Of a DNA stretch of 64,000 nucleotides, positions 26,501-35,500 are shown piece after piece. Origin of the DNA: Xanthostigma xanthostigma. Taxonomy: Eukaryota > Arthropoda > Insecta > Raphidioptera > Raphidiidae. The notes under the pieces are model-generated. The model had not been told where the DNA came from. It did no database searches and saw only the letters and a program-made list of their open reading frames with translations. The stretch's first letter is position 1. Every line of letters begins with the position of its first letter. The position numbers and the translations under genes are program-made. Location of the stretch: assembly GCA_963575645.1 (NCBI GenBank), contig OY754464.1, forward strand, positions 66,128,948 to 66,192,947, given 5' to 3'.

Positions 26501-29500
26501 TTGTTATTACCTAAATTGTGTGGTTCTTTTCTGTCAAATGTATCAATCATAGGCATTTCCTTCCAGCGTACAATATGTTCCAGAAGCTGGGCAGGAGGTA
26601 ACTTGGTATCTAATGTACGTAAAAGGCTCTGCCGACCAGCTCCGAGTAATGACACGACACCGGGAACGCTCGGAGGTATCTCCCGTTCTAATATAGGTCC
26701 GATTCGGCCACATATTTCCAACAGGTGCTGAGTACTAATGTGAGGAAATTTCAGTTCCTGCAGCAAAAACAAAAGCACACCAATGTACATTAATAAATCA
26801 GTGTCTCTCAACCTTTCCATTTTAACGGTACACATGCAACTATAAAAAAGATTGATGCTGTCCTATTAGCTAAAATTTCTTGCTAACTCAAAGATATTTA
26901 CATTCACTTATATAGAGTGAATTGCATTTTAAGGATTTATGACGGGTATCTCAAATCACCGAAAAATAAAAGAAATTTTGTCACTGTATCTACACTAATA
27001 TTATAAAGAGGTAAAGTTTGTAAAATAGGATGTAGGTGATAATCTCCAAAACTACTCATCCGATTTCAAAATTTTTTTTCACCAATATTTAGAATGGACC
27101 TTCAGGATTGACATAGGCTATATATTATCGCGTTAAAATAAAAGCGCTTTTCGTGGAGATCAATTTTGCATGTGCGTCAAGTTGGATGGGACACCCCTTA
27201 AAAACAAATTTTTTTTTTACGCCAATCGTTAGTGCTACGTTAGTGCCGCGCACTGTTAAAATTTCAGCGTTAGTGCCGGAAAATTGTGGAAAATATAGAG
27301 GGTTGTTGGTGTCCCATCCAACTTGACGTCAAGTTGGATGGGACACCCCTTAAAAAAGCGACTTTTGAAATTTTTTTTTGCGCCAATCGTTAGTGCTGCG
27401 TTAGTGCCGTATACTGTCAAAAGTGCTCGGTTACTGCCAAAAAATTGTGGAAAATATAGAGGGTTACTTTTCTTCCCTTTTAGGTTGACGTGAAGCTAGA
27501 TGAGACACCCCTTAAAAAAAACGATTTTTGAAATATTTTTTTGTGCAAATCGTTAGTGCTACGTTAGTGCCGCATACTGTCAAAATTTCAGCGTTAGTGC
27601 CGGAAAATTGTGGAAAATATAGAGGGATTTCGAAAAAGTCAAGTTAGATGGGACACCCCTTATAAAAGCGACTTTTCAAAAAAATTTCTACGCCGATCGT
27701 TAGTGCTACGTTAGTGCCGTATACTGTTAAAATTTCAGTGTTAGTGCTGGAAAATTGTGGAAAATATAGAGGATTTAAAAACGTCAAGTTGGATGGGACA
27801 CCCCTTAAAAAAACGACTTTTCAAACATTTTTCTACGCCAATCGTTAGTGCTGCGTTAGTGCCGTATACTGTCAAAAGTGCTCGGTTACTGCCAAAAAAT
27901 TGTGGAAAATATAGAGGGTTACTTTTCTTCCCTTGTAGGTTGACGTGAAGCTAAATTAGACACCCCTTAAAAAACGGTTTTTGAAATATTTTTTTTGCAA
28001 ATCGTTATTGCTACGTTAGTGCCGCATACTGTCAAAATTTCAGCGTTAGTGCCGGAAAATTGTGGAAAATATAGAGGGATTTCGAAAAAGTCAAGTTAGA
28101 TGGGACACCCCTTAAAAAAGCGACCTTTCAAAAAAATTTCTACGCCGATCGTTAGTGCTACGTTAGTGCCGTATACTGTTAAAGTTTCAGTGTTAGTGCT
28201 GGAAAATTGTGGAAAATATAGAGGATTTAAAAACGTCAAGTTGGATGGGACACCCCTTAAAAAAACGACTTTTTAAAAATTTTTCTACGCCAATCGTTAG
28301 TGCTACGTTAGTGCCGTATACTGTCAAAAGTGCTCGGTTACTGCCAAAAAATTGTGGAAAATATAGAGGGTTACTTTTCTTCCCTTGTAGTTTGACGTGA
28401 AGCTAAATTAGACACCCCTTAAAAAACGATTTTTGAAATATTTTTTTTGCAAATCGTTATTGCTACGTTAGTGCCGCATACTGTCAAAATTTCAGCGTTA
28501 GTTTCGGAAAATTGTGGAAAATATAGAGGGATTTCGAAAAAGTCAAGTTAGATGGGACACCCCTTAAAAAGCGACTTTTCAAAAAAATTTCTACGCTGAT
28601 CGTTAGTGCTACGTTAGTGCCGCGCACTGTTAAAATTTCAGCGTTAGTGCCGGAAAATTGTGGAAAATATAGAGGGTTGTTGGTGTCCCATCCAACTTGA
28701 CGTCAAGTTGGATGGGACACCCCTTAAAAAAGCGACTTATGAAATTTTTTTTTGCGCCAATCGTTAGTGCTGCGTTAGTGCCGTATACTGTCAAAAGTGC
28801 TCGGTTACTGCCAAAAAATTGTGGAAAATATAGAGGGTTACTTTTCTTCCCTTTTAGGTTGACGTGAAGCTAGATGAGACACCCCTTAAAAAAAACGATT
28901 TTTGAAATATTTTTTTGTGCAAATCGTTAGTGCTACGTTAGTGCCGCATACTGTCAAAATTTCAGCGTTAGTGCCGGAAAATTGTGGAAAATATAGAGGG
29001 ATTTCGAAAAAGTCAAGTTAGATGGGACACCCCTTATAAAAGCGACTTTTCAAAAAAATTTCTACGCCGATCGTTAGTGCTACGTTAGTGCCGTATACTG
29101 TTAAAATTTCAGTGTTAGTGCTGGAAAATTGTGGAAAATATAGAGGATTTAAAAACGTCAAGTTGGATGGGACACCCCTTAAAAAAACGACTTTTCAAAC
29201 ATTTTTCTACGCCAATCGTTAGTGCTGCGTTAGTGCCGTATACTGTCAAAAGTGCTCGGTTACTGCCAAAAAATTGTGGAAAATATAGAGGGTTACTTTT
29301 CTTCCCTTGTAGGTTGACGTGAAGCTAAATTAGACACCCCTTAAAAAACGGTTTTTGAAATATTTTTTTTGCAAATCGTTATTGCTACGTTAGTGCCGCA
29401 TACTGTCAAAATTTCAGCGTTAGTGCCGGAAAATTGTGGAAAATATAGAGGGATTTCGAAAAAGTCAAGTTAGATGGGACACCCCTTAAAAAAGCGACCT

Positions 29501-32500: not shown

Positions 32501-35500
32501 CTTCCCTTGTAGTTTGACGTGAAGCTAAATTAGACACCCCTTAAAAAACGATTTTTGAAATATTTTTTTTGCAAATCGTTATTGCTACGTTAGTGCCGCA
32601 TACTGTCAAAATTTCAGCGTTAGTGCCGGAAAATTGTGGAAAATATAGAGGGATTTCGAAAAAGTCAAGTTAGATGGGACACCCCTTAAAAAGCGACTTT
32701 TCAAAAAAATGTCTACGCTGATCGTTAGTGCTACGTTAGTGCCGTATACTGTTAAAATTTCAGTGTTAGTGCTGGAAAATTGTGGAAAATATAGAGGATA
32801 TTAAAACGTCAAGTTGGATGGGACACCCCTTAAAAAAGCGACTTTTCAAATATTTTTCTATGCCAATCGTTAGTGCTACGTTAGTGCCGTATACTGTCAA
32901 AAGTGCTCGGTTATTGCCAAAAAATTGTGGAAAATTTAGAGGGATTTCTTAACGTCAAGTTAGATGGGACACCCCTTAAAAAAGTGACTTTTCAAAAAAA
33001 TTTCTACGCCGATCGTTAGTGCTACATTAGTGCCGTATATTGTTAAAAGTTCAGTGTTAGTTCTGGAAAATTGTGAGAAATATATAAGATTTCAAAACGT
33101 CAAGTTGGATGGGACACCCTTTAAAAATAAGACTTTTCAAAAAAAATTCTACGCCAATCGTTAGTGCTGCGTTAGTGCCGTATACTGTCAAAAGTGCCGC
33201 GTTAGTGCCGGGAAATTGTGGAAAATATTCACGATTTTTATATATCTATATAGTCAAATGAGACAAGTATATCTAATAAACTAAACATAACTATGTCCAA
33301 ATTGTACAAATCGATATAAATTAAATTTTTACTTCGTGACAGAAAATAAATACGTAAGTGGTAGCTGTTAGGATTTACAATGTTTTTCTAGGAAAATTTC
33401 ATATTTTTCTGGTAAAAATGGATCATTAATATTTAATAATTTCCGAAAAAAATAAATAGTTAAGATAATGTGTAATACTGTACCTACAAACAATACTTAC
33501 CATTATTATCAATTAATTAAATTAATTAAAAAAATATGTATCCACATAGACAGAAAATGGAGAATTATGGCTGCAGGAAGGATTTCTAAAATTAAATAAA
33601 AAAATAGTTTTTTTTTTCTAAATAGGTACTTACATCATGACTATTATTGTAGCGTTGCTCTAAATATATCAGACCATTGATTTTATAATTCTAAAAAAAA
33701 TCAATATAGGTACTTTCTGAAATATTGACAAAAATATGAAAAATACACATTAAAAGTACAAATTTTGATAAAAATCTTCAAGTGACACGCAATTAAGAAA
33801 ACATGAGATTTTCTACGAAAATGAAAGAAAATCGGGTCACAGTATTACACATTATCTGAACTATTTATTTTTTTCGGAAATTATTAAATATTAATGATCC
33901 ATTTTTACCAGAAAAATATGAAATTTTCCTAGAAAAACATTGTAAATCCTAACAGCTACCACTTACGTATTTATTTTCTGTCACGAAGTAAAAATTTAAT
34001 TTATATCGATTTGTACAATTTGGACATAGTTATGTTTAGTTTATTAGATATACTTGTCTCATTTGACTATATAGATATATAAAAATCGTGAATATTTTCC
34101 ACAATTTCCCGGCACTAACGCGGCACTTTTGACAGTATACGGCACTAACGCAGCACTAACGATTGGCATAGAAAAATTTTTGAAAAGTCGCTTTTTTAAG
34201 GGGTGTCCCATCCAACTTGACGTTTTAATATCCTCTATATTTTCCACAATTTTCCAGCACTAACACTGAAATTTTAACAGTATACGGCACTAACGTAGCA
34301 CTAACGATCGGCGTAGAAATTTTTTTGAAAGGTCGCTTTTTTAAGGGGTGTCCCATCTAACTTGACTTTTTCGAAATCCCTCTATATTTTCCACAATTTT
34401 CCGGCACTAACGCTGAAATTTTGACAGTATGCGGCACTAACGTAGCAATAACGATTTGCAAAAAAAATATTTCAAAAACCGTTTTTTAAGGGGTGTCTAA
34501 TTTAGCTTCACGTCAACCTACAAGGGAAGAAAAGTAACCCTCTATATTTTCCACAATTTTTTGGCAGTAACCGAGCACTTTTGACAGTATACGGCACTAA
34601 CGTAGCACTAACGATTGGCGTAGAAAAATTTTTGAAAAGTCGTTTTTTTAAGGGGTGTCCCATCCAACTTGACGTTTTTAAATCCTCTATATTTTCCACA
34701 ATTTTCCAGCACTAACACTGAAATTTTAACAGTATACGGCACTAACGTAGCACTAACGATCGGCGTAGAAATTTTTTTGAAAAGTCGCTTTTATAAGGGG
34801 TGTCCCATCTAAGTTGACTTTTTCGAAATCCCTCTATATTTTCCACATTTTTCCGGCACTAACGCTGAAATTTTGACAGTATGCGGCACTAACGTAGCAC
34901 TAACGATTTGCACAAAAAAATATTTCAAAAATCGTTTTTTTTAAGGGGTGTCTCATCTAGCTTCACGTCAACCTAAAAGGGAAGAAAAGTAACCCTCTAT
35001 ATTTTCCACAATTTTTTGGCAGTAACCGAGCACTTTTGACAGTATACGGCACTAACGCAGCACTAACGATTGGCGCAAAAAAAAATTTCAAAAGTCGCTT
35101 TTTTAAGGGGTGTCCCATCCAACTTGACGTCAAGTTGGATGGGACACCAACAACCCTCTATATTTTCCACAATTTTCCGGCACTAACGCTGAAACTTTAA
35201 CAGTGCGCGGCACTAACGTAGCACTAACGATTGGCGTAAAAAAAAATTTGTTTTTAAGGGGTGTCCCATCCAACTTGACGCACATCAATTTTGCAACGTA
35301 AGTCGACGAAAAAACGGCGGCAACCTACAAATTCGAGCGAAGCCGGACCAGGCCGCTAGTTCCTTAATAGGTATATCTGCAATAAGTACCCAAAATTTCA
35401 GAACGGTTTACTAACTGGTTTAAAAAATTTAAAATCATGAAATTAACATGTGCTCTTATGGGAAAATATGAGAATATGTAGCTACGAAACTCTGCTGTTC

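What the first reader, a model, noticed from the sequence alone, without database searches (positions are those of the whole stretch)
27171..35284. Giant lopsided fold-back transposon whose one arm has grown into a satellite array
Exact 11-bp duplications and 20-bp inverted termini show that the whole 8.1 kb moved or grew as one element. The right arm (about 1.45 kb) keeps about seven monomers. The left arm (about 6.3 kb) has about forty, through four rounds of a 1374-bp unit. The central palindrome proves former symmetry. This looks like a transposon in the act of seeding a satellite. I know of fold-back elements with internal tandem repeats, but not of this one.
Basis: partly seen in the sequence, partly recalled or inferred. 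Interest (0 to 1): 0.8.

Follow-up and report, generated by a model that had tools for sequence, protein, structure and literature searches.

The report
Snakefly foldback transposon with expanded arm
A non-coding jumping DNA element of a snakefly has one of its two repeat-filled arms lengthened by three extra copies of a 1,374-base block, a clear before-and-after example of a kind of repeat growth already known from fruit flies.

Summary
The window is chromosome 1 of the snakefly Xanthostigma xanthostigma (irXanXant1.1, inferred from assembly statistics). The element spans 27170-35285 (8116 bp), has ends ATGTGCGTCAAGTTGG..., and sits between 9-bp (not 11-bp) target-site duplications, CAATTTTGC. 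Six further full-length copies (2.9-4.4 kb) were found; all seven have exact 9-bp duplications at different sites, so this is a mobile family. Arms are built of ~145-162-bp monomers, G(EAB)n plus inner monomers. A sister copy on chromosome 6 is the 'before' state: 7 mismatches and three 1-bp indels over 3992 aligned bases, plus exactly 4122 bp more in the window copy, three extra 1374-bp units. Each new junction is a chimera of terminal monomer G and an internal B, joined inside a 24-bp identical block, as out-of-register recombination would give. No transposase frame lies inside. The duplication size, shared with Mutator-type (MULE) transposons of this genome, suggests a MULE moves it, but no autonomous partner was found. 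I saw no satellite elsewhere: 134 of 203 near-exact monomer cores lie in the stretches of the seven elements (33 were not looked at). Tetris of Drosophila virilis is the published precedent. New member of a known kind.

The parts
27161..27169 (.). left 9-bp target-site duplication CAATTTTGC
   Evidence: Read with six other copies that show the same element ends; matches 35286-35294.
27170..35285 (+). whole foldback element, 8116 bp, ends ATGTGCGTCAAGTTGG... / ...CCAACTTGACGCACAT
27170..33228 (+). left arm, 40 monomers: G EAB EAB EA [F EAB EAB EA]x2 F EAB EAB EAB C b D
27170..27326 (+). terminal monomer G, itself ending in an inverted copy of the end motif (GGTGTCCCATCCAACTTGAC)
   Evidence: Sequence; G class.
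27225..28598 (+). 1374-bp unit 1
   Evidence: identical to unit 3.
28599..29972 (+). 1374-bp unit 2, starts with the chimeric junction block
   Evidence: one difference from units 1 and 3.
29973..31346 (+). 1374-bp unit 3
31347..32720 (+). 1374-bp unit 4 (most diverged; four private differences)
28599..28622 (+). 24-bp block ATCGTTAGTGCTACGTTAGTGCCG shared by terminal monomer G and an internal B; the recombination join of the chimeric F monomer (repeated at +1374 and +2748)
33229..34091 (.). AT-rich non-coding centre; inverted outer parts and a loop of 357 bp (33482-33838)
   Evidence: no stop-to-stop frame of 110 codons or more in the element.
34092..35285 (-). right arm, 8 monomers: G EAB EAB + inner monomer
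35286..35294 (.). right 9-bp target-site duplication CAATTTTGC

Best explanation
A non-autonomous foldback-type DNA transposon of a dispersed snakefly family. Shown: it was inserted as a unit with a 9-bp target-site duplication. Its arms are head-to-tail monomers, most of which open with a more or less degenerate copy of the terminal motif, ordered G(EAB)n. The left arm of this copy differs from that of a near-identical sister copy by three extra 1374-bp units, joined in phase at a chimera (F) of the outermost monomer G and the third B, inside a 24-bp identical block. Inferred: an out-of-register exchange made the first duplication (nine monomers), later exchanges between the now near-identical units raised the count to four; unequal sister or homologue exchange rather than slippage or a rolling circle; movement in trans by a MULE (Mutator-like) transposase, the repeated end motif serving as extra transposase-binding sites.
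For: Seven of seven full copies have exact 9-bp duplications of different sequence. Window copy versus the reverse complement of the C6 copy L010: 7 mismatches, three 1-bp indels over 3992 aligned bases, plus one insertion of exactly 4122 = 3 x 1374 bp. Monomer F occurs three times in the window's left arm and in none of the other 13 arms of the seven copies. Junction block of 24 bp common to G and B. Units 1-3 keep the L010 state at the differing sites, but for one change in unit 2; unit 4 has four private changes, so two rounds are likely. End-motif copies in the element at up to 5 mismatches over 25 bases: 33 on + and 11 on -. Short relatives with the same ends and near-matching 9-bp duplications: 95, 129, 788 and 864 bp (4 of 21 scanned loci against 6 of 420 in the control). 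MULE transposases are present (53 PF10551 matches); the two families whose ends I could read have 9-bp duplications, exact in 3 of 4 copies and 8 of 9 bases in the fourth, and one has 16-bp repeats near both ends and an 83-bp array of 14.4 versus 6.3 copies in near-identical elements. Galileo end repeats bind its transposase domain (PMC3688188, abstract and passages).
Against: No transposase gene was found between any pair of these ends. No PF10551 match lies within 150 kb of the 43 termini or of the 67 exact 13-base end words (nearest 162 and 154 kb; on the lists). In four MULE loci (one copy each of four families) no end of this kind was found in pairs. The Mutator assignment therefore rests on duplication length and anatomy only. 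17 of 21 other scanned loci gave no partner with a matching duplication, and 7 of the 43 termini were not fetched. The copy number of the 1374-bp unit comes from one assembly; reads were not seen. The empty-site search did not complete. A contraction of the C6 copy instead of an expansion here is possible in principle.
Confidence: 0.85

Rival explanations
1. A satellite in formation: the element is the source of an independent satellite DNA that already spreads outside transposon ends.
For: One arm holds 40 monomers with a 1374-bp higher-order period; the same route is published for Tetris (PMC4079207). 33 of 203 monomer cores lie in stretches I did not fetch.
Against: Only 203 near-exact monomer cores in 623 Mb: 134 in the stretches of the seven elements, 170 in all fetched stretches, 45 in the window; no long array without termini was seen. 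The word used would miss diverged arrays, and one search lists only the first 100 places.
Confidence: 0.08
2. Assembly artefact: the extra 4122 bp are a false expansion and the true copy looks like the C6 copy.
For: Units 1-3 differ by at most one base, which can mislead assemblers.
Against: HiFi assembly, QV 66.1, 18.51 Gb in 1.64 million reads, thus about 11 kb per read, longer than the array (PMC11871431 passages); unit 4 has four private variants and unit 2 one, not expected from copying one stretch by mistake.
Confidence: 0.05
3. Element of another superfamily, as Galileo is a P element with foldback ends, or Merlin/hAT-like.
For: Foldback ends arose in more than one superfamily (Galileo, PMC3573991 and PMC3688188 passages); no transposase was found here.
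Against: 7 of 7 duplications are 9 bp; hAT and P elements usually give 8 and Galileo 7 bp (recalled).
Confidence: 0.2
4. Array grown by rolling-circle copies of an excised circle and reintegration, or by replication template switching in the hairpin, not by unequal exchange.
For: Units 1-3 are nearly identical, as rolling-circle copying would give.
Against: Simple in-phase exchange explains the chimeric monomer, the exact 1374-bp step and unit 4 as the more diverged copy with no circle.
Confidence: 0.25

Closest known systems
Tetris (Drosophila virilis, D. americana; PMC4079207, parts 1-4 of 6 read)
   Same: Non-autonomous foldback element, long ends with internal tandem repeats (about 220 bp), 8-10 bp duplications, no transposase found, short related MITE (DAIBAM), alleles differing in repeat number, unequal crossing over proposed, thought to be Mutator.
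   Different: Host of another insect order, sequences not compared; monomers here start at the very end and form a fixed trimer order with a terminal monomer; the expansion here is by a 1374-bp nine-monomer unit with a chimeric monomer; no free arrays seen here, whereas Tetris repeats form kb-size satellite arrays.
Muta1 and other Aedes aegypti MULEs (PMC5225508, passages)
   Same: MULEs with 8-9 bp duplications, mostly long ends with subterminal tandem repeats, many non-autonomous derivatives with differing repeat numbers; the authors say Muta1 can be classified as a type 2 foldback element.
   Different: Repeats of 9-15 bp; transposase known and, for Muta1, active.
Tm1 (Meloidogyne; PMC3169594, passages incl. 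part of the abstract)
   Same: Mutator/foldback family with composite ends of variable length, mostly 9-bp duplications, MITE-like forms and transposase-coding forms.
   Different: Repeat motif of about 14 bp; transposase-coding form found.
Galileo (PMC3573991, PMC3688188, passages)
   Same: Long ends; in the F subfamily ~210-bp tandem repeats that vary in number independently between the two ends; repeats carry secondary transposase-binding sites.
   Different: P-element superfamily; 7-bp duplication (recalled); longest ends about 1.26 kb in D. mojavensis.

Membership tests
Foldback-type DNA transposon (structural class) | long inverted terminal arms made of tandem repeats around a short centre | tested here: met
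Foldback-type DNA transposon (structural class) | dispersed copies, each with a target-site duplication | tested here: met
   7 of 7 full copies with exact 9-bp duplications.
Mutator (MULE) superfamily | 8-10 bp duplication, 9 most often | tested here: met
   the same length at two MULE families of this genome.
Mutator (MULE) superfamily | MULE transposase (PF10551) encoded by an element with the same ends | tested here: not met
   53 PF10551 matches, none within 150 kb of a terminus. The seven copies hold no frame of 110 codons or more. In the 22 other fetched loci L015-L036, frames of 110 codons or more were listed and only some were scanned: 10 frames, 0 transposases; long frames in L016-L019 and L020 were left as retroelement-like by eye. 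Filed therefore only as a probable MULE derivative.
Tetris family | sequence identity with Tetris ends and TIR-220 | not tested
   No Tetris sequence was compared.
Satellite DNA | long arrays independent of transposon ends | tested here: inconclusive
   None seen: 134 of 203 near-exact monomer cores in the stretches of the seven elements, 170 in all fetched stretches; 33 not looked at, diverged arrays not excluded.

The most novel reading that the evidence does not exclude
The exchange between the terminal and an internal monomer has built a new higher-order repeat that carries an end-like palindrome (GGTGTCCCATCCAACTTGACGTCAAGTTGG) every 1374 bp. If transposase recognises these, the arm holds several internal pseudo-ends and could launch partial elements or go on growing, so that expansion and mobilisation would feed each other.
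Probability: 0.08. Interest if true: 0.55.

Novelty: new member of a known kind. Interest (0 to 1): 0.35.

Why it matters
The chromosome 6 and chromosome 1 copies are a nearly base-perfect before/after pair for the first step by which a transposon arm becomes a higher-order tandem array, with the join mapped to 24 bp. That makes the mechanism and rate of early array growth testable in a living species. It also seems to be the first foldback family described from snakeflies: no paper of the held library holds both 'Raphidioptera' and 'foldback'; most subscription journals are not in that library.

Tried and rejected
Autonomous partner: open frames were listed in the seven copies and in the other terminus loci. 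L026 (7.2 kb between two ends) has no matching duplication and holds what looks by eye like LINE fragments; L028 has exons that look FLYWCH-like by eye, but Pfam gave no family for the one scanned. Ten frames of L015, L024, L025, L026, L028, L030 and L036 were scanned: three match ordinary host families (myotubularin-related, its associated 3-PAP, DUF4518), seven none. Two MULE families (L037/L041, L038/L042) have other ends; in L039 and L040 no bounded element was found. The scan also missed the true ends of L037 and L038, which only the comparison of copies showed, so its negative result for L039 and L040 is weak.

My first monomer count used too strict an anchor and undercounted the inner monomers of several arms; the layouts are replaced, and the monomer distances, which used them, are not used. 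The BLAST hit counts differ again, because one monomer can give two hits.

Empty-site test: the joined flanks of the window copy were submitted and never answered. Other unanswered searches were repeated unchanged until answered.

A note of mine gives 37 and '35+' MULE matches in the C10 block; the recount is 31.

Full report
What was checked. The window is contig 1, 66128948-66192947, of a 623,323,696-base, 28-contig genome. The contig lengths I saw agree with the chromosome table of the snakefly Xanthostigma xanthostigma, irXanXant1.1 (84.21, 69.27, 54.71, 54.71, 53.13, 50.87, 50.7, 49.42, 46.35, 40.92, 25.13 and X 18.36 Mb; 28 scaffolds; 623.30 Mb; mitochondrion 17.75 kb) (PMC11871431, passages seen). 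The identification rests on these numbers.

The element. Inverted arms (98% over 1170 nt) enclose an AT-rich centre with its own inverted repeats. All seven full copies share the ends ATGTGCGTCAAGTTGGATGGGACACC, and each has an exact 9-bp duplication of its own: CAATTTTGC in the window, and six others (L009-L014). The terminus pattern occurs 43 times at up to 3 mismatches, 0 in the reversed control; 14 of the 43 are the ends of the seven copies. Of the other 29, 22 lie in stretches I fetched and 7 were not fetched. In one search, 21 loci were scanned for a partner end (two of them, L025 and L028, are not among the 43); 4 of 21 gave one with 7-8 of 9 duplication bases (lengths 95, 129, 788, 864 bp), 17 gave none within the sequence held; the control with false duplications gave 6 of 420.

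Arm architecture. With a tolerant anchor the arms, left/right, hold 40/8 (window), 7/11 (L009), 8/13 (L010), 5/11 (L011), 8/10 (L012), 8/8 (L013) and 5/8 (L014) monomers. All 14 arms begin G E A; 12 of 14 go on as EAB trimers from the start (one to three whole trimers outside the window's left arm), two (L009 left, L012 right) lack the first B. The innermost monomer is degenerate and its class label is uncertain (score per base down to 0.49 in L012 right). So unequal arms are the rule (6 of 7), partly by whole trimers, and the window copy is the extreme.

The expansion. Aligned to the reverse complement of L010 (C6:3785710-3789702), the window copy has 7 mismatches and three 1-bp indels over 3992 aligned bases, and one block of exactly 4122 bp, 3 x 1374. 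The unit boundary is a chimera, F, of G and B, joined in ATCGTTAGTGCTACGTTAGTGCCG (24 bp). F is found three times in the window arm and in none of the other 13 arms. Units 1 and 3 are identical, unit 2 has one private change, unit 4 four; at these sites L010 agrees with units 1 and 3. Two adjacent private changes in unit 4 restore the common GTGCCGG and look like a gene-conversion patch (inference). If the units were as old as the split from L010, about 2.4 differences per unit pair would be expected; the six pairs show 1, 0, 4, 1, 5 and 4, so the expansion is of about that age, with a younger second round among units 1-3 (inference from few differences).

Is it a satellite? A 20-base monomer core has 203 matches genome-wide at up to one mismatch, control 0. 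Of these 134 lie in the window and the six stretches of the other full copies (45 in the window) and 170 in all fetched stretches; 33 lie elsewhere and were not looked at. One search lists only the first 100 places and one search scored 40 of 159 candidates, so diverged arrays are not excluded, but nothing seen suggests a free satellite.

What moves it. None of the seven copies has a frame of 110 codons or more. The genome has 53 PF10551 matches. One family (L038/L042, 2943 bp, 99.66% identical, 607-aa frame) has 9-bp duplications attcaattc and tttatgtat. Another (L037/L041, 398-aa frame with the MULE domain) has 16-bp repeats near both ends of L037, an 83-bp array of 14.4 versus 6.3 copies, and duplications caatttttc (9 of 9) and aatatcgag/catatcgag (8 of 9). 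So MULEs with 9-bp duplications, and one with varying tandem arrays, live in this genome, but their ends differ from ATGTGCG and no PF10551 match lies within 150 kb of such an end. The Mutator reading is probable, not shown.

Comparison with print. Tetris (PMC4079207, parts 1-4 of 6 read) is the same kind of thing: a non-autonomous foldback element with tandem repeats in its ends, 8-10 bp duplications, allelic change in repeat number, a related MITE, and satellite arrays grown from it. Galileo, Muta1 and Tm1 (passages only) supply the functional reading of the repeats and the Mutator link. No paper of the held library holds both 'Raphidioptera' and 'foldback'; the one paper that holds 'Xanthostigma' and 'transposable elements' is the genome note of another snakefly (PMC10838129, listing only).

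Verdict. Real, well-bounded, recent and instructive; a new member of a known kind. The new points are the trimer order, the mapped chimeric join and the sister copy that shows the state before growth.

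Noticed in passing
G000 contig C10, 8.8-16.3 Mb (chromosome 10): 31 of the 53 MULE transposase (PF10551) matches of the genome fall in this 7.5-Mb block: a MULE-dense region, perhaps pericentromeric.
   Followed up: no
L037 4639-5828 and L041 3544-4066: A MULE with a 398-aa frame carries an 83-bp tandem array of 14.4 versus 6.3 copies in two copies that are 99.8% identical elsewhere: the same kind of arm growth in a transposase-coding element.
   Followed up: partly
G000 C22:243371 and C22:459624 (L017, L019): Two termini of this family have identical printed flanks (35 bases) and mirrored arms, so the unplaced scaffold C22 seems to contain an inverted duplication.
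   Followed up: no
window 19812-20354, 38274-38811, 50620-51152, 58179-58708 and 25291-26085: Five copies of a ~540-bp repeat, 86-95% alike, in both orientations; the fifth is split by a ~250-bp insert whose parts recur at 7886-8041 and 54847-54951: nested short repeats.
   Followed up: no
L033 2896-2990 and L032 101-229: Very short elements (95 and 129 bp) with the same ends as the 8-kb element and imperfect 9-bp duplications.
   Followed up: partly
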